Source: a virus
DNA length: 64,000 nucleotides
Direction: 5' to 3' (one strand)
IMG/VR virus record: IMGVR_UViG_3300044691_000113
Span: 1-64,000 of that record
The notes below the pieces were generated by a model that saw nothing but the letters and a program-made list of their open reading frames with translations, was not told where the DNA came from and ran no database searches. The translations under genes and the position numbers were made by a program. Of the stretch, positions 18,076-64,000 are shown piece by piece. Each line of letters starts with the position of its first letter. Position 1 is the stretch's first letter.

Positions 18076-18438
18076 CTACTGCGCAACCGGTTCTATTTGC
18101 AGTCGTGGAATTACCGAGAGGTCGATGTATGTCCCATTGAAATGGATCGTCCAGCACATCCGACCGTGAGGCTTCAGCCGCGGGAACGGACCATCGTGAC
18201 CGTAGATGGCGAAGCCGATGATCTCTTCTGTCTTCTCACGCAAAGCATCGGCGAGTTCCTGCGGCGGCGCTGCCTCGTCAATCCACGGAATCGCCACAAG
18301 ATCGATGTCGCGCTTGATACTTCCATGCACGGTGAGCGCATAGCCTAGCTCGCGGGCACGCTCGCGCAGAGGGGTGATCGTCTTCGCGTAGGCTTTCGCG
18401 ACTCGAATCTGGCCGTGACGATCGAGGGGGATTTTCAC
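18076..18438 (-). CDS. MNT-type nucleotidyltransferase-like phage protein
   Basis: This 120-aa protein starts at a GTG that overlaps the portal stop (GTGA). It has HGSIKRDIDLVAIPW near residue 33, a G-S-x3-D-x-D pattern that matches the nucleotidyltransferase-fold active site, and a later WTIHFNGTYIDLSV stretch that supplies the third strand. This small family is often found in phage late gene sets. Its substrate is unknown. It sits between portal and scaffold and is probably coupled to portal translation. Confidence 0.7.
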   Translation of the reverse strand: MKIPLDRHGQIRVAKAYAKTITPLRERARELGYALTVHGSIKRDIDLVAIPWIDEAAPPQELADALREKTEEIIGFAIYGHDGPFPRLKPHGRMCWTIHFNGTYIDLSVIPRLQIEPVAQ

Positions 18439-26700: not shown

Positions 26701-26841
26701 CTGCGTCCAATCGACGGGGTTGAGGGCGCCGGAGCCGGGGAAGGTGTAGGTTGCGGGGCACTGAGACCATGCGTATCCGGCAGCAGACCAGAGGGCTAAC
26801 AGAGCAACGACCCGCTTCATCGATAGAATTCTCTTTAGCAT
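23710..26841 (-). CDS. Secreted beta-helix protein with chitobiase-like repeats (fibre or spike candidate)
   Basis: This 1043-aa protein starts MLKRILSMKRV, and residues about 8-26 form a Sec signal peptide ending A-W-S. An N-terminal concanavalin-like region is followed by two segments resembling chitobiase C-terminal repeats (CYTTDGSTPTT near 260, IWTTNGTTPTAN near 363). Then comes a long Asn/Gly/Thr/Ser-rich region with short repeating strands that fits a right-handed parallel beta-helix. Cys pairs are frequent, consistent with export. The signal peptide is unusual for a phage fibre. It may be a displayed adhesin, an exported moron or a spike. Confidence 0.7.
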   Translation of the reverse strand: MLKRILSMKRVVALLALWSAAGYAWSQCPATYTFPGSGALNPVDWTQTTVSATSALIEGSSTTFPTTASTEGMAIWVGSSCSPGNDHFSQAVLTAPFSAATGVIVRGTTAGNGYLFAPGITGIYKLTALGGSAIASCPSVAPGHTIMLAANGTTLTAYDNGVPICNGTDSTYATGNAGLLVDRRSTSTDSFGSFQVGVSPPVPLLNPTAALSTAVFQNSDGGANTYPFIGFNPAYQQATKLRFIPSNINAVYRSAAAPIAICYTTDGSTPTTPATPDGTCTHGTLYTFNAGPSGLINFDGSATIKLLSTATGFTNSGIVTINLAITPLYPYPVISGVTNGAYSYSPLVATINGAFGSNVIWTTNGTTPTANGSCAATNGTAAANGVQVTLPNSATTPVKFITCVGGVSSSPQTGTYTQQAQRTWIVDTTANGGGTRFSSNMTSGQCNGLSTTHYVSGTNQPCPFNDIRYLWDDDSGIIGQGQWVIAGGDIVIIKGCTALGTQSNPSNPNCRIGWDVNNGGGVSNNWCNSVGNQGCTNPWIPAGSATQRTQFLGKNFAACATGGSTNPRNYTAGQLTQIFGGMGLTNIFNIASTQHVAISCLEITSHNGVCSTFGTPNYPRGCSRNIPVDDYAGNGILEDNQTSDIVMTDLYIHGLDHAGVQGPFGAGIAPTRVFIGFNGFAAWNMDDGGSTPDGVGATMIASYPTMIGNGCIEQYPIVNTVFSALSCWATVNGGFGDALSGQDTLLDTFSLDHADMEYNTKDATIGPHPIAAHIIITNSKVVGNMGSAWKFISDVNGTLDFHDNQSILNCNRMSEALPGAAQNFNQSTGLGGSYLSTAGDFCRAGGNGFAANLQSGAVWTRYNNTFISNSDGGYHSFISCGSAYNTPNPPGGCGTAVINDTNNIFIGYQMNGQPNGPAVFGTDAGSVANPVYHNNISIGEKAGTGLPCGTNGNLCATPTLVSQPPQTPLPTTETFLDNFNFNLTSGSNAVRAGTTPCATVDFANNAQTSPCTIGALIFATPALTHPQTFGTINFLGHQTQFGH

Positions 26842-27784: not shown

Positions 27785-30700
27785 TTATATCCCCGGGCAG
27801 GTATAGGTAATGGTGTAGCCGGTCGAAGCGGTGGGTGCCGTACCGACATTGAGGGTCCACACCGAGGTGGTGTAGCTCCACGAGTAGGGCAGAGCAGTGA
27901 AGGGGCTGGCAGTGAGGACGACGCTTGCCGTGCAGTCCGGCAGATTGGTGTGTGCCGTACCCGCCGTCACGGTGAGCAGTGCGCCCGTCGTGGTCGCCGT
28001 TCCTGCGGTGAGGGTGACGGTCCCGTTCGTGGGCCCGCAGAGATGGCTTGCGGTGCAGGCGATCGTCGGTGACGTTCCAGCAGCAGCGCCCGCCGCGATG
28101 GTTGCCGCCGTGAAGGAGCCGATTGCATTGCCCTTGAGGGTCGGTGCCTGCTCTGCCCCGGTGTACGTGCCGCCCGTTCCAGTGGCTCCGTTGATGACTG
28201 GCGAGGTCAGCGTCTTGCCGGTGAGCGTCTGGGTCGCCCCGATGCCTGCCAGCGTGTCGCTCGCCCCTGGCAGGGTAAAGGTTGCGTTGGCGGACCCGGT
28301 GAACTGCGTGTTGAAGGCACCGTTGAGGGTGAGGGTTGAGCCAGTGATCAGAGTGAGTGTCGCCGAGGTCGTCGGCGCCGTGATGGTCACCTTGTTGATA
28401 GAGGTGGCAGTCGCCGCGCCAAGGGTCGGTGTCACCATCGTGCAGCTCGTCACCAGGCAGACGTTGCCGCTTCCGCTCGTCCCCACGATGGTCTCGATGA
28501 TCGCGCTCGAAGAGTTTGTGTAGAACGGGAATCCGGTAGCGGCCGCGCCTGCCAGCGTGACACTGTAGGACGTGACTGCGGCCGGAGCCTGGATGCAGAT
28601 AGTCGTCGTCGTGCAATTGGCATCACCTGTACTTGTCGTTCCCTGTGGCAGGAAGAGAAAGCCTGCTGTGGTGCCGGTGCCGACGAAATACTTGCCTGCG
28701 AAGCCAGCCGTGCCGGTGTAGGTGAAGGCCGTTCCGCTGTCGGTCGCCAGGGAGTTCTTAGGGGCTCCGCCTGCACCGCCGCCGAGCATCACTACGTTAT
28801 TGGTCAGCAGCGCCGAGGTTGCGGCTGCCGAGGTGCTGGAGGCGTAGAAGACACCGCCAGAGGTGAAGCCTGCACTCGCCGGGAACGTGTTGCCGTTGAC
28901 CGAGGTCGCATTGATCGTTCCGCTGCCGGATACGCCAAGGCTGGCACCAGTGCCGACCACCATAGCCGCCGTGGAGTTCGTGCTGCCGGTGAGCGCAGAG
29001 AAGGCAGTTGAGCCGCCTGAGCCGCACGCAGCACCAGCGTCAACCAGGTCGATGCCGTTGGCTGCCAGCTTGACACAATCTGCCGCGGTGCCGGCTGTCG
29101 CAATACCCGGAATCATCAGCGCACCGATGTTGTTCGGGTTCTGCATCCAGCGGTGCAAGGTGGAGTCAGGGTAGAGCGCCGCAGAGGAGGCTACGCCGGT
29201 GATTGCCGTTCCTTCCGGAATCAACCAGCCGTTAGCCGTTCCTGAGCCCGTGTAGGTGAGCTTCGTTCCGTCATCCGTAAGTCCGGAGTTGATGATGGAA
29301 TTCGCACCGTTGGCTTTGGGGATAGTGTTCGTAACCAGCGAGGTCGAGGTCGTGTTGCCGGTGCCAGCAGCAGGACAACCAGACCCACCCGTCTGACAGA
29401 GGCCAGCGAGCGCCACACCGCCTACCGCGCTGGAGTTTGTGGCCAGTGTCGCTGTCGCCGCGTTGCCAGTAGTGCTCTGGTTGAGTGTGGGAAAGTCGGC
29501 AGCTACGGCCGCAGAGAGCGTGCCTGCCGTGTCCTTCAGTATCCCGGTGAGACCTGATGGCCCTTGAGTTGTTCCCAGATTCCCGGAGAGAAGCGAAAAG
29601 CTGTAGTCGCCGCTCACGGGCACAACCGCTCCGGCTCTCGTGTTGAAGCTCGACACACCAGTCCCGGAGCCGCTGAACGTATAGGCGTTGCCTGTATGAG
29701 ATACGCCCGGTCCGCTGAAGGTGAAGGCCCCAGTCAGCGTATCAATACTGATTACGCCACCACCACCGCCCCCGCCGCAGCCAGAGCAGCTTGGCACGGT
29801 GATCGGCACGTCGCTAGACCATCCGGAAACTGTCTGAATCACGTGGGAATCGCCCGAGACGCCGTGGATTGTCGTCGTTGTTGCAGAGCTGGTCTGGTCG
29901 ATAGTGGAGAATGTCCCGCCAGCACCGCCCACTACGCTATTGGCGTCTGAAGTAGTGATGGTTTGGATGTACCCAGAACCGGTAGTCTGAAGAATTATTA
30001 TGTGGTCTGCGGGTTCCTCGCGTACCGTCAAGGTGTTAGTGCTGTTTCCGGTCACCCTCTCCATTTTGCCGGTGTCCTGGTGGATCGTCTCGGTGTACGT
30101 CCCGTTTTGGGTTGGGACCCGAAAAAGAAGAAAATTGGAGCGTGCATCCGCACAACCAAACGAGCAACCCTGAAATGTGACGAACGCGGTGTCGGGCGTG
30201 GGAATATTCTGGAAAATGGTGAGGAACGGGGCTTCGTTATTGGTCATGTCGAGCATGACGTTCGCAACTGGCTTAGTTCCCCCGTGGCCGAGATAGTTAT
30301 TTGGGGTGTCCTGGAACGCAACGCGATACCACGTCGTTCCTTCGGGGATCTGGCCGCCGAGTTGATCAAAGTGAATAACGTCAGGGGTAGCCGGAGAGAC
30401 CTGTGATTGGAAGTTGATAAGGTTGTGGTCAAGCCCCTGGAAAACTTCGCTATAGACCTGATCTTCTAAGTGGTCTCCGGCAGTTACCTGAAAGTTGGTA
30501 TTCGGCTCGACGGTCAGATTGAAGTTGTTGGCGAAGGTGACGGGGTCTACCGTATTCACGATTTCTACGGCGGGAAACAGTTGAGCTTCGCGAACTGAAA
30601 GTCCATTGAGCTGAGACTGAATCTCGACAGCATTAGTGCAGGTTGTCGTAGCTGCTGGGCCGGCAGTGTTCCATGTGACCGTAGAGCCGTTATCGGAGGT

Positions 30701-33130
30701 AATAGCTGCAAGGATATTGAACGACGTATCTGCACAGCCAGAGACGATGATGAAATCTTTCGACAGGACTAAGAACGGATCAGTCACCGGGGCGCTGACG
30801 ACGTTCGAGCTGTTTCTGGTAAGCGTGACGCCAGCAGGGGCAACTATTCTCGTTGTGGCGTAGCCCGAAAGAGCCTGTAGCCAACGACCCGCACCGATCC
30901 TTGAATACAAGAGGTGCGTGGCGTCCAGTGCCCCAACGATACGGATAATCTGCCGCCCAGGGAACGTTCCAGTGTACTGATTGGCCCTGATGTCAATCGC
31001 GGTGCAGGAGTGCGAACCCTGTACGACATAGGCCTGGGCTTGGTGGTTGTAGCGTAGGGCTACCGTTATGGTCTGAGTCCCGCTAGAAAATCCACCGACC
31101 GAGACTACCCTTGCACTCTCCATATAATCGCGGTCGGCATAGCAGACGGTGCTGGCCGTGGTGATTGCGGAGGTGAGACCGGTGACCACAACGGTCGCGT
31201 TCGTCGTCGCGCCATAGTACTGGGTAGGAACGGTTACAGGCGAAGCTACCCGTCCGATGTTGTCGGGAGTCAGGGTAAGCGTGTCGATTGTCAGTTGGCC
31301 CGCATCGGCAACCCCCGGATCACCTGAGAAAACTATCTTGAATAGGGCGCTTCCCTTGCTGGCATCGACGAGGGGCGTTCCATCTCCCGGAAAGGGCACG
31401 TTACTAATCAGCGTCCCTTGTATCAGCGTGGCTCCCGCCGCAAGAGTGGAGTTAGCCGAGATGGTCATCGGGGTAAGGTTCTGGCCGATCTGATTCCTTA
31501 CCGTATTGAAGCCTTCAGCACCGCCGTCCGGGTTTCCCCTGTTGTTGGTGACAACGTTCTGCCAGATGTGGCTGTCGCCAACCCCCATTCCTTGATGCTG
31601 AATGGTGAATTCGTTGACAATGCCGCGCCGCATGAATTCGAAGGCCCACTGAAAGGCTACGTAGCTGTCAGGTCCGCCGCCGTCAAATCCGTTCTTCCCC
31701 GACCCGGTCATTTCAAAATCGCGTAGGTAGGTGAAGACGTTATTTCCCGCACCCGAAGCCTGCGCCTGCTGATTCGATACCCAGCGGTCGTCGCTAACAA
31801 TGCCGCTCGGCGATCCTACATTGGTGTTATAAGCGTAGCTGCCAATACCATTCTGCCGGTAGTCATAGAACTTAGTATTGTTGGCAAATGGTGCTGGGCA
31901 GCCGATGGCATCACGCCAGTTGGGGCCGACGCAGGTACTATTCCCGCTGAGGATGCCTTCAACTTGGGCGTAATCCGGGCCAGCCACAACGATGCTTCCC
32001 GCTACCGCCAAAGCATTCGCTATGCCATCGTTCGAGGTTGGTGTGGTCTGATTGAGGAAGGCATTCTTGAGGCCGTCGTTACTCAGAGATTTGAAGTTGC
32101 CCACGCTGTCGAAGGTGGCGTTAGAGGCTGATCCCGCTCCACCTCCGGCGCTGAAGATTGCCTGGTTGACCGTGCCGGGTATCGTGCTTCCACCTCCGCC
32201 CGGTCCGCATTGCCCGTTGACCTGCAACACGTTGGTTCCAACTGTGCAAGGGGTTCCACTCCATATCGTCCCAGCGAGCGAGACGTAGTCACCCAAGACT
32301 GCCGCGCGAGAGGTGAGCGGCGTGATGCCGAAGACAGGAGCATTGCTTGGCAGGGTTGCGCCAGCTCCGCATCCGCCCGTCGAGCAGAGCGTAGTCAGTG
32401 GAACAAGACCGATCTGCGTAGGAGGGTTGCCGGGTACGGGTCCAGCCCATACGAAGCCAGGGGTGATGTACGCCTGATTCGCGTCGATGCAGAAGGTTGT
32501 CCCGTTGATCGCGGAGGCTATCGCCTGGTCGTTTCCACGCTGGCAGCTCGGGTTGAGCGAGGGATTCTGTGTCCAGTAGACAGCGGCGTCGCCCTGCAGC
32601 CTCGAGCACACCCATGGGTAAGGATCGGAGGCGAGGGTGTTGTTATACATCGCACTCGGATTGCAGTTGAGCGTGGGGATACCGGCGCCAGAGATGGTGA
32701 TGCCAGCGGGAGCGATGTAGCCGTCGTAGGAGAAGGACGCCGTGGTGATGTTGGTCAGCGGGAAGGTGAAGTAGGTTGTGCCGCCGCCCGTGCTCTGTGT
32801 CTGGATCCGGTAGCGTGTGTTCGCCGGAGCCATCGTCAAAGGGTTGGCGATCGTCGGGGGAAAGCCGCCGATGTTCTGCACTGCTCCCTTGACGACTGGG
32901 AGAGTGAAGGGCGCACTCGTCGGAGATCCACCCTGGGGCGTGTAGGTAACCGGGGTGTTTGACGTGTCGGTGACGGTGAAGATGAGTTGGCCGGTGAGCG
33001 GTTGCCGGTTGTTATCGACGACCTTGTTGCCGCTGACGGGGATGGTCGCCTGCGCATGGAGCGCAGGGGGGATGGCGAGGAGGACGGCCGCGAGCAGTCC
33101 GAAGGTAAGCCAAAAGTTGATCCTGCGCAA
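27785..33130 (-). CDS. Giant secreted tail-fibre-like protein
   Basis: This 1781-aa protein is read from a TTG at 33130 with GGAGG six bases upstream. An ATG at 33166 lies inside the promoter-like repeat and is less likely. A Sec signal peptide (LTFGLLAAVLLAIPPALHAQ) opens the protein. An N-terminal domain (ATIPVSGNKVVDNNRQPLTG), a long Thr/Ser/Gly/Asn-rich beta body and fibre-type repeats (TGNAATATLATNSS near 1345) follow. The repeats are typical of tail fibres, and the signal peptide is not. It is the first gene after promoter-like copy 5. Confidence 0.7.
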   Translation of the reverse strand: MRRINFWLTFGLLAAVLLAIPPALHAQATIPVSGNKVVDNNRQPLTGQLIFTVTDTSNTPVTYTPQGGSPTSAPFTLPVVKGAVQNIGGFPPTIANPLTMAPANTRYRIQTQSTGGGTTYFTFPLTNITTASFSYDGYIAPAGITISGAGIPTLNCNPSAMYNNTLASDPYPWVCSRLQGDAAVYWTQNPSLNPSCQRGNDQAIASAINGTTFCIDANQAYITPGFVWAGPVPGNPPTQIGLVPLTTLCSTGGCGAGATLPSNAPVFGITPLTSRAAVLGDYVSLAGTIWSGTPCTVGTNVLQVNGQCGPGGGGSTIPGTVNQAIFSAGGGAGSASNATFDSVGNFKSLSNDGLKNAFLNQTTPTSNDGIANALAVAGSIVVAGPDYAQVEGILSGNSTCVGPNWRDAIGCPAPFANNTKFYDYRQNGIGSYAYNTNVGSPSGIVSDDRWVSNQQAQASGAGNNVFTYLRDFEMTGSGKNGFDGGGPDSYVAFQWAFEFMRRGIVNEFTIQHQGMGVGDSHIWQNVVTNNRGNPDGGAEGFNTVRNQIGQNLTPMTISANSTLAAGATLIQGTLISNVPFPGDGTPLVDASKGSALFKIVFSGDPGVADAGQLTIDTLTLTPDNIGRVASPVTVPTQYYGATTNATVVVTGLTSAITTASTVCYADRDYMESARVVSVGGFSSGTQTITVALRYNHQAQAYVVQGSHSCTAIDIRANQYTGTFPGRQIIRIVGALDATHLLYSRIGAGRWLQALSGYATTRIVAPAGVTLTRNSSNVVSAPVTDPFLVLSKDFIIVSGCADTSFNILAAITSDNGSTVTWNTAGPAATTTCTNAVEIQSQLNGLSVREAQLFPAVEIVNTVDPVTFANNFNLTVEPNTNFQVTAGDHLEDQVYSEVFQGLDHNLINFQSQVSPATPDVIHFDQLGGQIPEGTTWYRVAFQDTPNNYLGHGGTKPVANVMLDMTNNEAPFLTIFQNIPTPDTAFVTFQGCSFGCADARSNFLLFRVPTQNGTYTETIHQDTGKMERVTGNSTNTLTVREEPADHIIILQTTGSGYIQTITTSDANSVVGGAGGTFSTIDQTSSATTTTIHGVSGDSHVIQTVSGWSSDVPITVPSCSGCGGGGGGGVISIDTLTGAFTFSGPGVSHTGNAYTFSGSGTGVSSFNTRAGAVVPVSGDYSFSLLSGNLGTTQGPSGLTGILKDTAGTLSAAVAADFPTLNQSTTGNAATATLATNSSAVGGVALAGLCQTGGSGCPAAGTGNTTSTSLVTNTIPKANGANSIINSGLTDDGTKLTYTGSGTANGWLIPEGTAITGVASSAALYPDSTLHRWMQNPNNIGALMIPGIATAGTAADCVKLAANGIDLVDAGAACGSGGSTAFSALTGSTNSTAAMVVGTGASLGVSGSGTINATSVNGNTFPASAGFTSGGVFYASSTSAAATSALLTNNVVMLGGGAGGAPKNSLATDSGTAFTYTGTAGFAGKYFVGTGTTAGFLFLPQGTTSTGDANCTTTTICIQAPAAVTSYSVTLAGAAATGFPFYTNSSSAIIETIVGTSGSGNVCLVTSCTMVTPTLGAATATSINKVTITAPTTSATLTLITGSTLTLNGAFNTQFTGSANATFTLPGASDTLAGIGATQTLTGKTLTSPVINGATGTGGTYTGAEQAPTLKGNAIGSFTAATIAAGAAAGTSPTIACTASHLCGPTNGTVTLTAGTATTTGALLTVTAGTAHTNLPDCTASVVLTASPFTALPYSWSYTTSVWTLNVGTAPTASTGYTITYTCPGI

Positions 33131-33152
33131 AGTACGCCTCCGCTGTAACGCG

Positions 33153-33170
33153 GCGTACCCTACCATTTTT
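33153..33170 (-). promoter_or_regulatory. Late promoter-like 18-base repeat, copy 5
   Basis: Identical core, 22 bases before the TTG start at 33130. It also contains part of the TAA stop of the upstream gene (33169-33171). The minus-strand upstream flank GAATCCT matches copy 3. Confidence 0.6.
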
Positions 33171-35225: not shown

Positions 35226-35281
35226 TTCGCCCTCGTTTCTCGCAGGGTAGCACGGTTGCACCGTATCCAGTGCAACATTAT

Positions 35282-35320
35282 TTGTCGTAACTCTGACGAC
35301 AAGTTGCGACAGCCAAACGG
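35282..35320. repeat. TTGTCGTAACTC / ACAGCCAAACGG element, attP copy
   Basis: TTGTCGTAACTC at 35282-35293 and ACAGCCAAACGG at 35309-35320 recur in the same order at 46375-46423 with ten bases more between. TTGTCGT and ACGACAA also form a 7-bp inverted repeat (35282-35302) here. Confidence 0.45.
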
Positions 35321-35370
35321 GGGAGAGTTTGAGGGAGAATTAGCAAAGCCACATACGCCAAACCCTGATA

Positions 35371-35390
35371 AATGCTGGAAAATGCTGGAA
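35371..35390 (+). repeat. Tandem 10-bp direct repeat beside attP
   Basis: AATGCTGGAA is repeated twice with no gap, 41 bases before the tRNA fragment. It may be a directionality-factor or integrase site. Confidence 0.4.
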
Positions 35391-35431
35391 CGTCGTAACA
35401 CTCTATGTCATTGAAAACACAAAATACAGAA

Positions 35432-35479
35432 TGGCTACGAACCAGTAGGTCGGGCGTTCGAATCGCTCCGGGCGCACCA
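35432..35479 (+). other. attP-like core: 3' half of tRNA-Arg(ACG)
   Basis: The fragment has the 3' part of an anticodon arm (TGG, loop CTACGAA with anticodon ACG, CCA), a T arm (GGGCG-TTCGAAT-CGCTC), the acceptor 3' strand CGGGCGC, discriminator A and CCA. No 5' half precedes it, so it is not a functional tRNA. Beside the integrase, this is the usual signature of an attP core that restores the 3' end of a host tRNA gene on integration. Confidence 0.75.
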
Positions 35480-35499
35480 TTTAGGATCAATAGCTTACC

Positions 35500-36220: not shown

Positions 36221-36388
36221 CTATCTCTGATTGCTCAGGCAGAAATTATTGCGTTCCTCTTCGTTGCAGAACCAACCGTAGGCGCCATCTTTGACCATGC
36301 GAGTCTTCGAGACGATCGAGCCACACTTCACGCACCGCGCAACCTCGGAATAGTAAGCAGGAAATAGCCAGCGAAGAAATCTCTTCAT
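36221..36388 (-). CDS. Small zinc-ribbon-like protein
   Basis: This 55-aa protein starts MKRFLRWLFP at 36388; its ATG overlaps the integrase stop (ATGA). C-V-K-C near 19-22 and two later Cys (near 41 and 50) suggest a zinc ribbon. Coupled to integrase translation. Function unknown. Confidence 0.55.
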   Translation of the reverse strand: MKRFLRWLFPAYYSEVARCVKCGSIVSKTRMVKDGAYGWFCNEEERNNFCLSNQR

Positions 36389-37626
36389 GCTCTTTTCCTC
36401 AGCATCTCCACAACCCTGGCGTTGGCACCGCGCACCGTCTCCGCCTTCGAACTGCCGCCGTACTTCAGGGTTTGCCGGATGTCTTCATGGCGCATGAGCG
36501 CCCGTTGCTCCTCGAGGGTGAGCTTCTCCTGGTCCATCATCGCCCGGTAGGTGTGGCGGAAGTCGTGCCAACCAAGGTTGGGGATGCCGATCAGCTTGCC
36601 CGCAGGGACGAGATGGTCCTGCTGCAACGTTCCACCCCAGAACGGACGGCCGGTAACGATGTTACAGAAAAGCCAGCCATTGACTGGGGTGGGGATGCCG
36701 TCTCGGGTCTCACCTTCGATAGTCTGCTCCTCGCGCCATAGCTCGAGGATGGCGTAGAGGTCTTCGTGGATTGGCAACTCCTCCTCAGATCCTTCGGTTT
36801 TCGTGTCGCCGGTGTTCTGACCCACTTGGGAGCGGTGGATGCTCATGACGCGTCGTACCATATTGAAGTCTTCCCAGCGAAGGCCGAGTATCTCACTGAC
36901 GCGCAGGCCCAACAGCATGGCGATGAAGATCATGGTGCGAACGTGGGGAGCCAGTTCTACCACCGTGGTCAGGGCAATCCACTGGTCATGGGTGATGATG
37001 TTCGCTGGGCGAACCTTCTTCCTGCGCCCCTTCACCTTGACCGCGGTGACTGGATTGCGTTGCATGGGGATAAGTTGGTGCTTCATCGCGTACTCGAAGA
37101 CAAGGTGTACGAACGCCTTGATGTGGAGCTTCGTCTTCTTGCTGGCTGGACGGGCAGGTTTGCCAGGGATCGTCTTGCCGGGGATGAGCTTGCCCTTTGC
37201 CATGCGGTCTGGGATAACCCTGTCGGGCTTGGCCAGGACTTCGTAGCCGTTGACCCAGTTCTCGATCGCGAGGATGTCCTTGACCATGTCGTCGACGCGC
37301 CACTCGCCCCAGTCTGCCCGTAACCGCTTCATGAACCCGAGGTATGTCTTGGCTGTCTTCGGGCGTATGTCCTTCGGCTTGTCCCACTCCAGTTTGAGGC
37401 GATCGCAGAGGCCGGAGACGTTGATGCCGGCGATGCGCTCGTTGATCTCGAGGAGTTGGCGGTCGGCTTCCTTGCGCGCGGCGCCCTTGGTTCGGAACTT
37501 GTCGACGGTGCCAATCTCTTTGGAGCGGTATCTACCGTTCTCTTCGAAGCGGAGAACCCACAGGTCAGGGCCCTTGGCGCGGGGTTTGCGGGTGACAGTG
37601 CCTTGCTGGTAGCTGCTGCGCTTCAT
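36385..37626 (-). CDS. int: Tyrosine integrase
   Basis: This 413-aa protein starts MKRSSYQQGT. It has an N-terminal arm-type domain (GTVTRKPRAKGPDLWVLRF), a central core-binding SAM-like region, and the catalytic domain with Arg near 242 (GLRVSEILGL), H-x-x-R near 354-357 (WHDFRHTYR) and the nucleophile Tyr near 389 (TLKYGG). All key residues appear intact. It should catalyse integration and excision at the nearby tRNA-Arg(ACG)-derived attP, and a small zinc-ribbon gene overlaps its stop. Confidence 0.9.
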   Translation of the reverse strand: MKRSSYQQGTVTRKPRAKGPDLWVLRFEENGRYRSKEIGTVDKFRTKGAARKEADRQLLEINERIAGINVSGLCDRLKLEWDKPKDIRPKTAKTYLGFMKRLRADWGEWRVDDMVKDILAIENWVNGYEVLAKPDRVIPDRMAKGKLIPGKTIPGKPARPASKKTKLHIKAFVHLVFEYAMKHQLIPMQRNPVTAVKVKGRRKKVRPANIITHDQWIALTTVVELAPHVRTMIFIAMLLGLRVSEILGLRWEDFNMVRRVMSIHRSQVGQNTGDTKTEGSEEELPIHEDLYAILELWREEQTIEGETRDGIPTPVNGWLFCNIVTGRPFWGGTLQQDHLVPAGKLIGIPNLGWHDFRHTYRAMMDQEKLTLEEQRALMRHEDIRQTLKYGGSSKAETVRGANARVVEMLRKRA

Positions 37627-43935: not shown

Positions 43936-44571
43936 ATGAATGATATGGGAGCACGACTGAAACAGCTTCGTACATCAGTGCATATGAGTCAGGGCGAACT
44001 CGCTCTGGCAACAGGACTCGAGCAGTCCACCATCTCGCGTATTGAGCGGGGTGAAATTGAACTTGTCTCCCCGGCCGCAAAAAAAATATCGGCGGCTCTG
44101 GGAATTTCCTTGGTGGGACTGCTCGGTGTGGCTCATAATGTATCCCCTGCCCCTCTTGGAACAAGACGACTCCCCGTGCTTGATTACGTCCAGGCTGCGA
44201 AGCGTGCAAGAGGTCAGGTAGGCCCGCAGGATTTGACAATGAAGCGATTCGCTGTGACCGATTTATCGCAATCTGCCAATAGTTATGCTCTAAACATCGA
44301 GGGTGACTCCATGGAGCCGGAGTTCGACGCCGGCGATCTGGTGGTCATCGACCCCGATGTTCCGTACCAGCCAGGAGACTACGTTGTAGCTGTTGGAACG
44401 GAAGGCAAGGCCACCTTCGGAAAATATAAGGCGACCGGCGTCAACAGTGAGGGTGCGGACACGTTCGAAATCGTCCCACTCAATCCCTATTACGCACCGC
44501 TGAGGTCCGGCCTTCTCAGCCTGACGATCGGTGGCGTGATGGTGGAGCACCGCAAGTTCCGCCGCAGGTAA
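43936..44571 (+). CDS. S24-type phage repressor (CI/LexA-like)
   Basis: This 211-aa protein starts MNDMGARLKQ; the next ATG at 43945 has AAAGG nine bases ahead and is a possible start. Residues about 5-60 are an HTH (VHMSQGELALATGLEQSTIS). The C-terminal half is an S24/LexA-type autoprotease with catalytic Ser near 125 (EGDSMEPEFD) and Lys near 163 (TFGKYK). It should hold lysogeny and be lost on RecA-stimulated self-cleavage after damage. It diverges from the Cro-like gene and probably binds the operators on either side. Confidence 0.85.
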   Translation: MNDMGARLKQLRTSVHMSQGELALATGLEQSTISRIERGEIELVSPAAKKISAALGISLVGLLGVAHNVSPAPLGTRRLPVLDYVQAAKRARGQVGPQDLTMKRFAVTDLSQSANSYALNIEGDSMEPEFDAGDLVVIDPDVPYQPGDYVVAVGTEGKATFGKYKATGVNSEGADTFEIVPLNPYYAPLRSGLLSLTIGGVMVEHRKFRRR

Positions 44572-56275: not shown

Positions 56276-56343
56276 CCCGCACGGGGTCGACGTCTGGCCC
56301 CTGCCGCACCCGCTGTAGAGAAGCACTCAGGAGAACACCGGAA

Positions 56344-56619
56344 ATGGAAGAACAAGGAATTGGATGGGCAGTCAAGCAGATGCACAACGGAAGTCTCGTG
56401 CGCCGCGCCGGTTGGAACGGTAAGGGGATGTTTATCTTCCTCGTGAACGGTAGCAAGTTCACCGTCAACCGCGCACCGCTCAATGTGATCTTCCCTGAAG
56501 GCACGGAGATCAGCTATCGCCCCCACGTCGATATCAGGACGCCAGACGGAAGCATTTTCCCTTGGAACGCAAGCCAGGGCGATTTGCTGGCCACCGATTG
56601 GGAACTCGCCACTACGTAG
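56344..56619 (+). CDS. Tad2-like (DUF2829) protein, candidate anti-Thoeris factor
   Basis: This 91-aa protein starts MEEQGIGWAVKQMHNGS. VRRAGWNGKGMFIFLVNG near 19-36, PHVDIRTPDG near 60 and FPWNASQGDLLATDWEL near 72-88 match the DUF2829 family. Members of that family (Tad2) sequester the Thoeris signal molecule, a cyclic ADP-ribose isomer. It lies between the beta-rich gene and the helicase in the early block, so it would be made soon after infection. Ligand specificity cannot be read from sequence. Confidence 0.75.
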   Translation: MEEQGIGWAVKQMHNGSLVRRAGWNGKGMFIFLVNGSKFTVNRAPLNVIFPEGTEISYRPHVDIRTPDGSIFPWNASQGDLLATDWELATT

Positions 56620-56670: not shown

Positions 56671-58062
56671 ATGCCCGAGCCCGTCAACGTCGAACTATCG
56701 CTCCCCGTCAACCAGCACGCAGAGATGACCATTCTCGGCGGCTGCCTGGTCGACGCTGCAGCTCTGGCAGACTCCTTAGACCTTCTCTCTCCCGACGCCT
56801 TCGCGCTCGACTCTCACCGCGAAATATTCTCCGCCATCCAAGCCATCAACAAAACTGGCGCGAGTGTAGACATCGTCACTGTCACCGACTACCTGCAAAA
56901 GAATAAGCGGCTGGCTGCGGTCGGTGGACTGCCTTACATCGCATCGCTCTCCGAAGGTCTCCCCCGCAAACTGTCCGTCGAGAGCTACGTCCGCATCGTC
57001 CACGACGCTTACCTTCAGCGCCAGCTCTACACCTTCGGAACGAGCGTCGCGGAGGGCGTCCTGGCCAAAGAGGACGAAGCCATGATCCTCATCGGAAAGG
57101 CGAAGCGCTGGCTCGCGTCGATAGAGGACGAGACCGGCGCCGACACGCCGATGGAGTCGGTCGGCCAGTACCTCGCGGATACCTATGCCGACCCCGAAGA
57201 CGTGTTCATCCTCGATCCGCAGGAGCAGGGAACTCCATCGGGCTTCGCATGGCAGGACGACAAGACAGGCGGCTACGTGCCGGGTCGCCTCTACATCCTC
57301 GCCGCACGCCCGAGCATGGGCAAGACGGCCAAGGTCGTCAACGAGATATCGAACGTTGCCCTCAAAGCCAAGGTTCCCACCGCCGTCTTCACCTTCGAGC
57401 AGGACCGCAAGGAACTCCTGCAGCGCCTCCTCTGCGGACGCGCCACCGCCAACCTGACCGACTTCATCAAGGGCAGGAGCGACCACGGCGACAAGGCCGC
57501 CATCCTCAAGGCGTATCAGGACTATCAGCAAGCGCCTCTCTACTGGGACCATAGCCCCGGCCTGACGGTGACGCAGATCCGCGCCAAGCTCATCCGCCTG
57601 CAAAAGAGCCTGACCGAGAAGCTGAAGGTTGTCTTCATCGACCAACTCAGCTTCATGAAGTGGGACGACGTTTACGAGAAGGGGCAGCGCACCGACCAAC
57701 TCATCGGCAGCATGACGCGCGGACTCAAGCGCATGGGGCAGGAGCTAGGGGTTGCCGTCGTCCTCGTGTGCCAGTTGGGACGCAGCGCCACCAAGAACAA
57801 GGACGCCCGCCCGACGCTGGCCGACCTCAAGGAATCTGGCTCGATCGAAGAGAACGCCGATGTCGTGGCCTTCCTCCATCGCGCCGAATACTACGACCGC
57901 ACCGATCCATCGTTACGCGGGAAAGGAGAGTACATCATCGCCAAGCAGCGCCAGGGGCCCGTAGGCTCGCACGTCCTGAAGTACATGGCCCAGTCCGTCA
58001 AGTGGCTGGACGAGTGGACACCGAAGGACGGCGACGACGACGGAGAACAAATCCCGTGGTAG
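56671..58062 (+). CDS. DnaB-type replicative helicase
   Basis: This 463-aa protein starts MPEPVNVELS. The N-terminal 120 residues resemble the DnaB N-domain (QHAEMTILGGCLVDAAALAD, ...). Walker A lies near 211 (ARPSMGKTA), followed by an EQDRKELLQRLLCGRA segment, Walker B (VVFIDQLSFMKW near 325) and a late motif (VVLVCQLGRSATKN). It should be the phage's replicative hexameric helicase. It lies directly after the Tad2-like gene. Confidence 0.85.
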   Translation: MPEPVNVELSLPVNQHAEMTILGGCLVDAAALADSLDLLSPDAFALDSHREIFSAIQAINKTGASVDIVTVTDYLQKNKRLAAVGGLPYIASLSEGLPRKLSVESYVRIVHDAYLQRQLYTFGTSVAEGVLAKEDEAMILIGKAKRWLASIEDETGADTPMESVGQYLADTYADPEDVFILDPQEQGTPSGFAWQDDKTGGYVPGRLYILAARPSMGKTAKVVNEISNVALKAKVPTAVFTFEQDRKELLQRLLCGRATANLTDFIKGRSDHGDKAAILKAYQDYQQAPLYWDHSPGLTVTQIRAKLIRLQKSLTEKLKVVFIDQLSFMKWDDVYEKGQRTDQLIGSMTRGLKRMGQELGVAVVLVCQLGRSATKNKDARPTLADLKESGSIEENADVVAFLHRAEYYDRTDPSLRGKGEYIIAKQRQGPVGSHVLKYMAQSVKWLDEWTPKDGDDDGEQIPW

Positions 58063-59435: not shown

Positions 59436-59870
59436 ATGCCAATGAATGAACCCCTTTGGTGGCTTACGAAAGACGGCGACAGAGACTGCCTCGAACTCTA
59501 CGAGCGGCATTACTCTGCGTATCGGTACAAGGACGGCCGGAAGCGAACGCAGTTTGTGGGACCAGGGGAAAAGGTCGTTTTACGGACGAGGGATGCAGAT
59601 GCGTTGTTTGTTTGGCGAAACTTCATCGACGACAGCGGGCAAGTCGGTATCAACTGCGCCATCTTTAGGAATGAAGGAGCGCATCGCAGCTCGGACCTCA
59701 TTCGCCAAGCGGACGCAATTGCTGATGCGCTCTGGCCTGATAGCAGGCATTACACCTACGTCGCACCGGAAAAGGTCGCGTCAAGGAATCCTGGCTATTG
59801 CTTTATCAAGGCCGGATGGCAGCGATGCGGGCGAACCAATACCGGGCTACTAATTCTTGAAAGACTCTAA
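59436..59870 (+). CDS. GNAT-like conserved phage protein
   Basis: This 144-aa protein starts MPMNEPLWWL. VGPGEKVVLRTRDADALFVW near 41, GVNCAIFRNE-like INCAIFRNEG near 71 and AGWQRCGRTNTGLLILE near 126 match a common phage family whose C-terminal end resembles an acetyltransferase. The catalytic loop is not clear. It ends convergently on the terminase genes with four bases of overlap. Confidence 0.65.
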   Translation: MPMNEPLWWLTKDGDRDCLELYERHYSAYRYKDGRKRTQFVGPGEKVVLRTRDADALFVWRNFIDDSGQVGINCAIFRNEGAHRSSDLIRQADAIADALWPDSRHYTYVAPEKVASRNPGYCFIKAGWQRCGRTNTGLLILERL

Positions 59871-60994
59871 CGCCCCATCCGCTTCTTATTCCGGATGTCG
59901 AACCGCCCCACCTTCGAACTCTTCCCCAGCCGCGAGATGAACCGCTCCGCCGCAATCTGCGCGCTGGTAGCGTTCAGTCCTTCAATCAACTTCTCCAACT
60001 GCTTCGCCGGAGGTATCGGCTCCGACTTGGGGAACTGCATGACGACATACTTGAATGCAGCGTCAAAAGCATGGTTGTCTTTATCGACTACCTTCTCCGT
60101 TTGGTTCTGGGTCATCAGTTGCCGCGCAGTGAGTTCGGCTCTCCGAATACGCTTGACCTCCCACAACAGGTTAGGCGAGTCGTAGGGGTGTAGCCCAGGC
60201 TGGCGCGCATCGCTCTCATTCCGGCACACAATGTACATCTTCGGTTTCTGGCTGTGGAGTTGTCCCCAGAGGTCGTCCTGAATCCGCTGAACGACGGCCA
60301 GGTCACTGCGTTCCCCCTCATACTTACGCAGTGACAAGCCAAGGTTCCTATATATAGATGCCGCGGCGACTAGCTGGCCTTCCTTGGTCGGCTCCTGGTC
60401 CCAGAAGATCGATGGGTCTGCATTGATCCATCGCATACGCTTCAGGTCGGGCATCCCCTTACCTGTGGGTTCTCCCGCTTCGTTCAGACCAAGAATCTCG
60501 CGGGTGTTGCTGGCAATGGTGTTGTCCCAGTCTTTCGTCTTGTAGCGGTAAAACTCGCCCGCGAAGTACTTGTTGCCCTCATGGTCGATGTAGCACTTCT
60601 CCAGCGTGGTCGGGTTGGTACTCCCGTGATCGAAGCCTCCCACCACGCCCCACTCCGGATTAGGTGCCCACGCTGGGTCTCGGATGACGATGACCGAACC
60701 GTAGCGGGTCAGGATGTCAGCAAAGACACGCTCACCGCCGCCCGCTTCGTCGACGATCTCGTACTCCCGCTCCCAGCCAGACTTGTTGCTGTCGTACTCC
60801 AGCCGCTTCATGTCGTACCAAGCTTTGCCTGCGGGTGTGGCTGGATCTCGGTCAGGGTCCGCAGAGTAGTGGATGCGTCCCACGGGGATGCCATTCGCCT
60901 TGCGCTTCACAGAGAAGCCGCGCACCACTTCGACGAGGGTCTGCTTCGGCACCCGGCTCAACTCCTCCAGCGCTCTGGCAAGTTCCGGGGTCAT
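59867..60994 (-). CDS. Large terminase, C-terminal (nuclease) gene
   Basis: This 375-aa protein starts MTPELARALE at 60994; its ATG overlaps the stop of the ATPase gene (ATGA). GGFDHGSTNP near 120 carries a first acidic residue of the RNase-H-type nuclease, INADPSIF near 190 a second candidate, and DNHAFDAAFKYVV near 325 a third. This is the nuclease half that cuts concatemers during packaging. Being a separate ORF from the ATPase is unusual. It is probably co-translated with the upstream gene. Confidence 0.75.
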   Translation of the reverse strand: MTPELARALEELSRVPKQTLVEVVRGFSVKRKANGIPVGRIHYSADPDRDPATPAGKAWYDMKRLEYDSNKSGWEREYEIVDEAGGGERVFADILTRYGSVIVIRDPAWAPNPEWGVVGGFDHGSTNPTTLEKCYIDHEGNKYFAGEFYRYKTKDWDNTIASNTREILGLNEAGEPTGKGMPDLKRMRWINADPSIFWDQEPTKEGQLVAAASIYRNLGLSLRKYEGERSDLAVVQRIQDDLWGQLHSQKPKMYIVCRNESDARQPGLHPYDSPNLLWEVKRIRRAELTARQLMTQNQTEKVVDKDNHAFDAAFKYVVMQFPKSEPIPPAKQLEKLIEGLNATSAQIAAERFISRLGKSSKVGRFDIRNKKRMGR

Positions 60995-61743
60995 ACGGCA
61001 TCCACGTCGCGCCGGAGATCGGAATAAGGGCCGATGCCAGCGGAAGAGTTGAAGACGATCTTCTGTGCGCCCGTGCCCAGAGCGTTCGAGAGGCACTGAA
61101 CGGCGTCAGGCTGGAACGAACTTTCATCATTGAAATACGACCACGGGTGATACGAACGGATAGCCTCCGCGCCTCCGGGTAGACCGATGATCTTGCCGCC
61201 ATGCGCGAACTCGAGAACGTCCGACGCCTGCTGCTTGCTCGGCTTTACCAATGGGAACGCCTCGCGCAACCACATCGGCTGACAGTCGTAGAGGCACTTC
61301 GCGTAGTCGACCATCTCCTCCATCTTCGTTTTGACGAGAGTCTGAAAGATACACTCACGCGCCGGAACCATCATCGCCTGCCAGGTGAAGTACCCGACGA
61401 TGCCCCAGGTCACCATCATGTCGCGGGACTTCTCCCAGAAGGTGATCTTCTCCGCGTGGATGAGGTCGAGCATCGGTTCAAAGTACGGCTTGTTCGGGAA
61501 CGGCTCGAACGGGCTGTTGCAGCCTTCCTCCTGCCAATGCGGGTTGAAGGTCTTCGTGCTGGTACTCAACCAGCGCCAGGGCGTAGCTGTAGCCTCCCGC
61601 ACCCGCCGCTGCGTCTCCTCGTCAGAAGTAGCGGACGCCTTCTGCTGTGACCTTGCCCGCTCCTCCTCAATCTGGTTGACACGATGCCGCGCCACAGCCC
61701 GCAGGTACACCTCGTGCGGCGTCAGCTCGAGCAGGGCAGACAA
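60991..61743 (-). CDS. Large terminase, N-terminal (ATPase) gene
   Basis: This 250-aa protein starts MSALLELTPH. It has a terminase-type Walker A (FWEKSRDMMVTWG near 103-114), a Walker B with catalytic acid (WSYFNDESSF near 201-210) and coupling motif III (VFNSSAG near 230), then ends DVDAV with a stop overlapping the nuclease ATG. The split falls just after motif III in the normal interdomain linker. Complete ATPase and nuclease motifs on the two sides argue for a functional split pair rather than decay. Confidence 0.75.
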   Translation of the reverse strand: MSALLELTPHEVYLRAVARHRVNQIEEERARSQQKASATSDEETQRRVREATATPWRWLSTSTKTFNPHWQEEGCNSPFEPFPNKPYFEPMLDLIHAEKITFWEKSRDMMVTWGIVGYFTWQAMMVPARECIFQTLVKTKMEEMVDYAKCLYDCQPMWLREAFPLVKPSKQQASDVLEFAHGGKIIGLPGGAEAIRSYHPWSYFNDESSFQPDAVQCLSNALGTGAQKIVFNSSAGIGPYSDLRRDVDAV

Positions 61744-61744
61744 G

Positions 61745-62278
61745 CTAGTTTACCCGTGGTGGCGCGAAGGCCCCATGCTCGGCGTAATAGCGCATCTCTT
61801 CGATCGTGCGGCCCTCGAAGAACTTGTCCGGATTCTTCAGCGGTTGGTCCAGACCGAGGATCCTGCCCATGGCTTCAGCCGCCGCGACCTGCCCGCTGAT
61901 TGAGCCGCGTGTCTTTTCGACGGGGATCTGCGACAACTCATCCAGCCTCGAGAGAACGTAGTCACGGGTGTAGCCCTTGCTGTGCAGGAGCCGCACTTCA
62001 GACTTCACCATCTCGACCATCATTCGTTCGCGGTAGACCTCGATGTACTTCTGGACCGGCTTGCGATGGTAGACCCGACTCGACTCCTCCGCCGTGTAGC
62101 CACACTTCTTGCCAGCATCGACGATGCGCTTCGTCTGGTTGGTGTTCGTGGTGCCGTCGCCCTTCATGACGAGGTGACAGAACAGGGTCTCCACTTGGCC
62201 GAGCGGAGGTTCTTTGCGTGGTGCTCGCGGCTTCGCTGGCTTCTTCGGGGTTGCGGCCTTCTTCTTAGGGGTTGGCAT
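61745..62278 (-). CDS. Small terminase candidate
   Basis: This 177-aa protein starts MPTPKKKAAT. A Lys/Pro/Ala-rich N-terminus is followed by an HTH-like region (NQTKRIVDAGKKCGYTAEES) and a long helical segment (ERMMVEMVKSEVRLLHSKG). This matches the DNA-recognition and oligomerisation layout of terminase small subunits, and it directly precedes the ATPase gene. It overlaps the giant gene's end by 14 bases. Confidence 0.65.
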   Translation of the reverse strand: MPTPKKKAATPKKPAKPRAPRKEPPLGQVETLFCHLVMKGDGTTNTNQTKRIVDAGKKCGYTAEESSRVYHRKPVQKYIEVYRERMMVEMVKSEVRLLHSKGYTRDYVLSRLDELSQIPVEKTRGSISGQVAAAEAMGRILGLDQPLKNPDKFFEGRTIEEMRYYAEHGAFAPPRVN

Positions 62279-64000
62279 CTGCTCTCCGTACTGCTTCCGG
62301 ATTCCTTCGTAACAGGTTCATCCGTTTCTTGTCCATCTCAGGCTTCAGGATACGACGCTCTGCCGGCGTTGCGAGATTGTTATAAACCTCGCGTGCATCG
62401 GCGTAGCTCATATTCTTGAACTCTTTCTGGAGGTACTCTGTGTGACCCGCCTTCAGCGCCATGTGCATGGAGCGCACCGTAGGCGCCTTCACGATCGCAT
62501 CCTGGTCCTGCCGGTCCTTCACCTGCTGCGGGGTCAGCGGTGTGCGGCGTGCGCGGAGTATCTCCTGCATCCTTGCCTCTGCCGGGGTCAGGTCGCGCTC
62601 TCTCGATGTGGGACTCAGGCCCGCAGTCTTCAGCACCTTCGTCATGGTGGACTGGCCGCCGTGCTTGTCGGTGAAGCCCTGCGCCGCAATCGGCTTCGGC
62701 AGCCCGTACTTTACCGCCTCCGCCACCTGCTGATACAGCGGTGCGTTCGGGTCGTAGACGTAGTTGTTGAAGAAGTCGCGGTTTTCGAGGAGGTCCACGA
62801 AGTTACCCGCTGTGCCAGACATGGATCCACGGACGTACTCGCGGGGATGCAGATAAGCGTGCTCGAAGTCCTTGAAGCCAGTCGGCAGCGAGATACGCTC
62901 CGGCTTGCCCGTGCGCGCATCCACCTGGCCGGTGCGCGGGTGAGTCATCTCTAGGAGCAGATGCCCGTCGTCACCTTCCGCGAACTCCCACGGGTACTTC
63001 TCCGTCCACAACTTCGTTAGGATCGTGCCGAGGACCACCGTCGCCGCCGCCATGCCGAGGAGCCAAGCCTGATTCATCCCAATCTTCGGGACATACTCGC
63101 CGGCTGGCCGCTGCTTCTTGCCTGCCTTCGCGTCTTCGATCATCGCCTGAATAGGGTCAGCAAACGCATGGTAGGCTTCCGGACCCGCCGCGGAACCAGC
63201 CCCGCGCCAGTTGCCCAGCTTCCACGTAACCGAGCGGAAGTTGAATTGCGCCACACTCTTGAACGTGTTGTTCCACAGGATGTTCGAGAAGTTCATCTCA
63301 CCGAAGCGGTTCTCAGCGGTGTCGATGACCTTGCGCGCTATCGCCGCCCGGGTGGTGTCACCGTTCGCGAGCGCCGTCCGGTTCTCGACGAGCTGCTGTG
63401 AATACTGCGCCAGCGCGAAGCCTAATTTGAGACGTGGAATGTAGTGTTCGAACAGAGGCGACATGATGACCTCGTTCGCCCAAGGCATCAGCCGGAGCAT
63501 TGCACCGCCGTAGTTCTTGTCGGTGATGGCCTGCCGCACCGACTTCATCATGGACACCTTGTAATCGGGGTTCATGCCCCACTGGTAGCCGCCCGTGAAT
63601 AGATCGTCCATCATCGCCGGAGCGTCCGGGTGCTGCTGTAGGAAGGAAGCCCCACGCTTTGTCTTGGCGAAGTTCTGCAGGTTGTCTACCATCTTGAGCA
63701 GGCTGCCGCCCGTGCGCGCCATCAGGACCGGCGCCGCCATCGACGTCGCAATCTCCTTGACGCCCTTCATCGCCTCCGTACCCTCACCCAGGCGGATACC
63801 GTTGTTCCACAGCCGTTGCACGCCGAGGCCGAACTGCGAACCCATCGCCTCCACCGTCTCAAAGCCGAAGTGGAACGGCGACAGGCCAAGCTCGATCATC
63901 GTCGAGATGTTCTTCGCCGCCATCAGAACCTTGCCGATCGCGTTCTCGCGGATGAGGTCGCGGGAGAGGTAGTTATTCAGCGTGCGCCCGGCAGACGGTT
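62265..64000 (-). CDS. C-terminal part of a giant polyvalent protein, cut by window edge
   Basis: The frame is open from the right edge; codons before the ATG at 63923 also lack a stop (reading PSAGRTLNNYLSRDLIREN). It ends with a stop at 62265, within the small terminase start. The visible 578 residues are mostly helical, with one hydrophobic segment (LLGMAAATVVLGTILTKL) and a basic, Ala/Arg/Asn-rich C-terminus. This resembles the C-terminal ends of phage large polyvalent proteins. Because the left edge of the window carries the N-terminal end of such a protein on the same strand, both are probably parts of one gene. Confidence 0.7.
   Translation of the reverse strand, partial: PSAGRTLNNYLSRDLIRENAIGKVLMAAKNISTMIELGLSPFHFGFETVEAMGSQFGLGVQRLWNNGIRLGEGTEAMKGVKEIATSMAAPVLMARTGGSLLKMVDNLQNFAKTKRGASFLQQHPDAPAMMDDLFTGGYQWGMNPDYKVSMMKSVRQAITDKNYGGAMLRLMPWANEVIMSPLFEHYIPRLKLGFALAQYSQQLVENRTALANGDTTRAAIARKVIDTAENRFGEMNFSNILWNNTFKSVAQFNFRSVTWKLGNWRGAGSAAGPEAYHAFADPIQAMIEDAKAGKKQRPAGEYVPKIGMNQAWLLGMAAATVVLGTILTKLWTEKYPWEFAEGDDGHLLLEMTHPRTGQVDARTGKPERISLPTGFKDFEHAYLHPREYVRGSMSGTAGNFVDLLENRDFFNNYVYDPNAPLYQQVAEAVKYGLPKPIAAQGFTDKHGGQSTMTKVLKTAGLSPTSRERDLTPAEARMQEILRARRTPLTPQQVKDRQDQDAIVKAPTVRSMHMALKAGHTEYLQKEFKNMSYADAREVYNNLATPAERRILKPEMDKKRMNLLRRNPEAVRRADANP

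What the first reader, a model, noticed from the sequence alone, without database searches (positions are those of the whole stretch)
56344..56619. Tad2-like (DUF2829) anti-Thoeris candidate next to the helicase
The motifs GWNGKGMF, a P-x-x-D-I-R-T-P-D-G region and W-N-A-S-Q-G-D-L-L-A-T-D-W match the DUF2829/Tad2 family. Its place in the early operon fits rapid expression after entry. Together with the polyvalent protein it suggests this phage invests in counter-defence.
Basis: partly seen in the sequence, partly recalled or inferred. Interest (0 to 1): 0.7.

Follow-up and report, generated by a model that had tools for sequence, protein, structure and literature searches.

The report
Phage Tad2-family signal-sponge gene
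A temperate soil-type phage carries a small gene of the known Tad2 family, proteins that soak up the alarm molecule of the bacterial Thoeris immune system; the call is solid, the family is already known, and which alarm molecule this copy binds is untested.

Summary
The ORF at 56344-56619 (+), 91 aa, is a genuine member of the Tad2 family (Pfam PF11195, formerly DUF2829): 79.4 bits against a cut-off of 25, E 3e-22. AlphaFold2 gives a confident model (pLDDT 94). In the PDB every strong structural match is a solved Tad2; Foldseek's best is ModTad2 bound to His-ADPR. All 11 ligand-pocket-segment columns that are invariant in the four solved Tad2 proteins are kept. The four other deviations are in helix alpha1, a tetramer contact, and are shared by its closest relatives. 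Synonymous changes are saturated while dN is about 0.3, so the gene is under purifying selection. It lies 51 bases upstream of dnaB in the rightward early/replication block of a temperate phage that also encodes a DarB-like antirestriction protein. Most likely it is a tetrameric sponge that sequesters a TIR-made NAD-derived signal and so blocks Thoeris. Which signal (gcADPR, His-ADPR or another) cannot be told: it belongs to a large environmental 'NRxPL' subfamily without a solved member. It lacks the long insertion linked to cyclic-dinucleotide binding. Ordinary: a new member of a known kind.

The parts
56344..56619 (+). Tad2-family (PF11195, ex-DUF2829) gene, 91 aa
   Evidence: Pfam E 3e-22; PDB sequence hits are all Tad2; model pLDDT 94.3; fold matches all Tad2
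56329..56334 (+). Shine-Dalgarno-like AGGAGA upstream of the ATG (inferred)
   Evidence: read from sequence
56359..56385 (+). helix alpha1 (residues 6-14): holds the only four departures (F6I, E11K, L13M, K14H) from columns invariant in the four solved Tad2 proteins; shared with L002, L003, L005 and, in part, L004 and L006
56407..56430 (+). residues 22-29, beta1-beta2 loop with GWNGKGM: first half of the ligand pocket by homology
56467..56481 (+). residues 42-46, NRAPL: signature of the subfamily (NRxPL), in the short 43-residue spacer
56539..56595 (+). residues 66-84, TPDGSIFPWNASQGDLLAT: beta3-beta4 loop, beta4, beta4-alpha3 loop and alpha3, second half of the ligand pocket by homology
56671..58062 (+). 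DnaB-type replicative helicase, neighbour
   Evidence: g556-Tad2-DnaB-g583 order kept in related virus L010
55661..56275 (+). uncharacterised 204 aa gene directly upstream, also upstream of Tad2 in L010
44913..59870 (+). rightward early/replication gene block (nuclease, SbcC-like, DnaJ-like, HNH, Tad2, DnaB)
62265..64000 (-). C-terminal part of a DarB-like antirestriction polyvalent protein that continues past the window; second counter-defence gene

Best explanation
The gene encodes a Tad2-family sponge. Inferred mechanism: four copies assemble (two V-shaped dimers); two pockets built from the GWNGK loop of one protomer and the TPDG/W-x-x-S-Q-x-D segments of another bind and hold the NAD-derived second messenger made by an infection-sensing TIR protein (ThsB), so the Thoeris effector ThsA is not activated and the infected cell does not abort the infection. 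Shown here: family membership, fold, conserved pocket segments, purifying selection, position in the early/replication block. Inferred: tetramer, ligand binding, anti-Thoeris effect, early expression. Left open: which messenger (gcADPR of type I, His-ADPR of type II, or another).
For: PF11195 79.4 bits, cut-off 25. PDB by sequence: ModTad2 (8v3e/9eib) E 4.5e-15, then AcrIIA7/HgmTad2, SPO1 Tad2 and SptTad2, nothing else (profile E 2.6e-31). Model pLDDT 94.3; the 24 PDB chains with E<=0.001 are all Tad2, best 9eib with His-ADPR; VIA-align Z 11.8-12.9 for Tad2, next unrelated 5.9. 19 of 23 columns invariant in four solved Tad2 proteins kept, all 11 in the pocket segments, using the pocket description in PMC12043709. 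Purifying selection. 348 phage records hold relatives. A canonical Thoeris operon (ThsA E 1.5e-183 plus ThsB genes) exists in a genome of the likely host phylum.
Against: No binding or protection data. Only 31-40% structural-alignment identity to any tested Tad2, and the tree puts it in an untested subfamily. Helix alpha1, described as the dimer-dimer contact, carries four substitutions at otherwise invariant columns. Positions 67, 72, 75 and 79 in the pocket segments are unusual for the family (P, F, N, G). Host unknown, so the Thoeris type met in nature is unknown.
Confidence: 0.8

Rival explanations
1. It is mainly an anti-CBASS sponge for cyclic dinucleotides, like the second site of HgmTad2 and SptTad2.
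For: HgmTad2 (8kbk) and SptTad2 (8wjd) bind cGG and share the fold.
Against: The cyclic-dinucleotide site is ascribed to a long insertion (PMC12043709). Between GWNGKxMF and the conserved W this protein has 43 residues, like SPO1 Tad2 and ModTad2 (41 each), not 53-59 as in SptTad2/HgmTad2. SPO1 Tad2, of the short kind, does not bind 3'3'-cGAMP (PMC11722364).
Confidence: 0.07
2. It is an anti-CRISPR of the AcrIIA7 kind that blocks type II-A Cas9.
For: AcrIIA7 is itself a Tad2-family protein (8kbi is titled AcrIIA7, 8kbj with the same sequence HgmTad2) and aligns at 35% identity.
Against: The signal-binding structures of the same protein offer a different activity; no cas9 context was seen; the long insertion of AcrIIA7 is missing here.
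Confidence: 0.03
3. A Tad2 fold repurposed for phage replication or nucleotide housekeeping rather than defence: relatives often sit by helicase, polymerase or exonuclease genes.
For: Neighbours here are HNH and DnaB; the two nearest named-phage relatives lie among DNA polymerase, helicase, SSB and exonuclease genes; the g556-Tad2-DnaB order is kept in L010.
Against: Only one of the 80 viral relatives fetched has this DnaB and g556 beside it, so the gene moves independently of the replication module; pocket segments fully kept. Early genes of any function share such positions.
Confidence: 0.06

Closest known systems
ModTad2 (Myroides odoratus prophage Tad2; PDB 8v3e, 9eib; gene is in L119)
   Same: Closest solved relative by sequence (E 4.5e-15) and by Foldseek (E 2.1e-8); short spacer (41 against 43); same GWNGKGMF and W-x-x-S-x-x-D...DW segments
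   Different: 35-40% identity in structural alignments; lacks the NRxPL motif; has V where this protein and the other three have Q78; binds His-ADPR (type II Thoeris), which is not shown for this protein
SPO1 Tad2 (gp34.65; PDB 8sme/8smf/8smg)
   Same: Same fold (Z 11.8-12.9), pocket segments, short spacer; founding anti-Thoeris Tad2, binds gcADPR
   Different: 31-36% identity; different spacer sequence; four alpha1 substitutions here
HgmTad2 / AcrIIA7 (8kbi-8kbk) and SptTad2 (8wjd)
   Same: Same fold and pocket segments; ASQ-x-D motif shared
   Different: 10-16 residues more in the spacer, tied to cGG binding; extra G before the conserved W
Tad2-like P015 of Sinorhizobium phage AP-20-A (PMC13299392)
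   Same: PF11195 protein in a soil phage, nearest to ModTad2, function predicted only
   Different: AP-20-A is a lytic podovirus; its sequence was not compared here

Membership tests
Tad2 family (PF11195) | Match to the family profile above the curated cut-off | tested here: met
   79.4 bits, cut-off 25, profile positions 3-72 of 73
Tad2 family (PF11195) | Tad2 fold | tested here: met
   pLDDT 94.3; 24 of 24 PDB chains with E<=0.001 are Tad2; Z 11.8-12.9
Tad2 family (PF11195) | Conserved ligand-pocket segments (beta1-beta2 loop, beta3-beta4 loop, beta4, beta4-alpha3 loop, alpha3) | tested here: met
   11 of 11 pocket-segment columns invariant in four solved Tad2 proteins identical; assignment by segment, individual contact residues could not be read from coordinates
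Tad2 family (PF11195) | Homotetramer of two V-shaped dimers interlocked along helix alpha1 | not testable with these tools
   only single chains can be folded; four alpha1 substitutions noted
Functional anti-Thoeris protein | Binds gcADPR, His-ADPR or another TIR product and restores phage growth against Thoeris | not testable with these tools
   needs binding and plaque assays
HgmTad2-type cyclic-dinucleotide sponge | Long insertion that builds the second, cGG-binding site | tested here: not met
   spacer 43 residues against 53 (SptTad2) and 59 (HgmTad2)
AcrIIA7 anti-CRISPR | Inhibition of type II-A Cas9 | not testable with these tools
   homology only

The most novel reading that the evidence does not exclude
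The NRxPL subfamily, common in environmental viruses and without a solved member, has tuned the Tad2 pocket to a TIR-derived messenger different from gcADPR and His-ADPR, and so marks a Thoeris-like branch in soil bacteria whose signal is not yet known.
Probability: 0.12. Interest if true: 0.6.

Novelty: new member of a known kind. Interest (0 to 1): 0.3.

Why it matters
It adds a well-supported Tad2 homologue, paired with a DarB-like antirestriction protein, in an uncultivated temperate phage. It also points to a large environmental subfamily whose ligand has not been determined; testing one member against gcADPR and His-ADPR would assign many viral genes at once. By itself the gene is an expected find: hundreds of phages carry a relative.

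Tried and rejected
Megablast of 50-64 kb against phages: no match. Protein searches of the DarB-like C-terminus and the terminase ATPase against named phages: none. Search for viruses with the same DnaB or upstream gene to test whether the slot varies: only L010/L163 is a true relative, too few to tell. Host: a late-block protein (18435-20831) in 396 genomes of the phylum of L090 (titled Acidobacteria) gave one weak hit; the integrase has relatives (E<=1e-20) in 23 of 297 genomes there and 0 of 99 of the phylum of Myroides: a hint of an Acidobacteriota host, not proof. ThsA_Macro (type II effector): no hit above the cut-off in 297 genomes of that phylum, and the control genomes were silent too, so nothing can be concluded; the ModTad2 and L090 genomes likewise. 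PADLOC has no model for the protein, as expected for a counter-defence gene. NCBIfam: no match. Conservation measured on loci is biased because they were found with patterns that include GWNGKGMF; I therefore used four solved proteins plus 16 tblastn phage hits for the pocket test. The primary SPO1 Tad2 paper that I looked up is not in the library, so single contact residues were not checked. No sigma-70-like promoter or terminator excess in the operon.

Full report
Observation. The window holds, exactly at 56344-56619 (+), an ORF of 91 codons with a plausible ribosome-binding site (AGGAGA at 56329-56334). It is the only PF11195 match in the whole 69,299-base virus record.

Identity. Pfam-A gives a single family, PF11195 'Tad2-like, Thoeris anti-defense 2-like domain', 79.4 bits against a cut-off of 25, covering residues 6-88. 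PHROGs families 1048, 872 and 30130 match too but carry no function. Among all PDB sequences only Tad2 proteins match: ModTad2 (8v3e, 9eib) best at E 4.5e-15, then AcrIIA7/HgmTad2, SPO1 Tad2 and SptTad2. A profile of 114 homologues raises ModTad2 to E 2.6e-31 and still finds nothing else.

Structure. AlphaFold2 with that alignment gives pLDDT 94.3, pTM 0.80. Foldseek against the PDB: 24 chains with E<=0.001, all Tad2, best 9eib, titled ModTad2 in complex with hisADPR; the next match has E 1.1. VIA-align: Tad2 entries Z 11.8-12.9, next unrelated chain 5.9.

Pocket. A review of the SPO1 work places the ligand between loop beta1-beta2, loop beta3-beta4 and strand beta4 of one protomer and loop beta1-beta2, loop beta4-alpha3 and helix alpha3 of another (PMC12043709). 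On the model I take these to be residues 22-29 and 66-84; this mapping is mine. To avoid the bias of the pattern-based homologue search I aligned the four solved Tad2 proteins and 16 tblastn hits from named phages. Of 23 columns invariant in the four solved proteins the window protein keeps 19, including all 11 in the pocket segments (G23 W24 N25 G26 K27 M29 I71 W74 S77 D80 A83). The four changes (F6I, E11K, L13M, K14H) all lie in helix alpha1, described as the dimer-dimer contact. The closest relatives L002, L003 and L005 share all four, L004 and L006 most of them, so this is a lineage trait and not decay. dN of about 0.3 with synonymous sites at or near saturation shows purifying selection.

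Which signal? ModTad2 binds His-ADPR (type II Thoeris) and SPO1 Tad2 gcADPR (type I), as summarised in PMC13299392; entry titles agree. The window protein falls with neither: it belongs to a subfamily marked by NRxPL and a 43-residue spacer, which makes up 107 of the 161 loci examined (a set chosen by similarity to it), and in the tree ModTad2 and SPO1 Tad2 both fall outside its clade of 98 sequences (support values are modest). The long insertion linked to cyclic-dinucleotide binding in HgmTad2/SptTad2 is missing, and the short-spacer SPO1 Tad2 does not bind 3'3'-cGAMP (PMC11722364). So a TIR product is the likelier ligand, but which one cannot be said.

Setting. The record is a temperate phage: integrase 36385-37626 (-) and a CI-like repressor with HTH and S24 domains 43936-44571 (+). 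Genes from about 44.9 to 59.9 kb run rightward: PD-(D/E)XK nuclease, SbcC-like, DnaJ-like, HNH, a 204-aa unknown, Tad2, DnaB. The order 204-aa gene, Tad2, DnaB is kept in one related virus, L010; the other close Tad2 relatives lack these neighbours in the DNA held, so Tad2 travels on its own.

Host and Thoeris. No close relative of the phage was found in named phages. Integrase similarity hints at Acidobacteriota. In that phylum 43 of 297 genomes have a ThsB_TIR match, many of them in long proteins that need not be Thoeris; one inspected locus is a canonical Thoeris operon with ThsA (E 1.5e-183) and two ThsB genes, next to ORFs that look like restriction-modification genes. So a matching immune system exists in the likely host phylum; a direct link to this phage is not shown.

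Verdict. Membership in the Tad2 family is as good as certain (about 0.99); an anti-Thoeris sponge is the most likely function (0.8). It is a new member of a known kind. The only open question of some interest is the ligand of its untested subfamily.

Noticed in passing
59867-61743 (-): The terminase large subunit appears split into two genes, an ATPase part (60991-61743) and a nuclease part whose ATG overlaps the stop of the first (ATGA); the same split at the same place is seen in related virus L010. PHROGs gives only a weak terminase match for the first part and none for the second.
   Followed up: partly
62265-64000 (-) and on to the end of the record (L212): DarB-like antirestriction polyvalent protein of at least 2100 aa with methyltransferase-like and SNF2/helicase parts, open at the record's end.
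   Followed up: partly
L195 (G199:C16:1-11000): Canonical Thoeris operon (ThsA plus two ThsB) beside restriction-modification-like ORFs in a genome from the phylum of L090.
   Followed up: partly
23710-26841 and 27785-33166 (-): Two very long proteins, 1043 and 1793 aa, with signal-peptide-like N-termini in the late gene block; only the first has domain matches (chitobiase C-terminal/Fn3-associated).
   Followed up: no
35278-35490 (-): ORF reading GAPGAIRTPDLLVRS, a string I recall as typical of spurious ORFs over tRNA genes, 0.9 kb from the integrase gene; ARAGORN finds no tRNA, so it may be a tRNA remnant at an attachment site.
   Followed up: no
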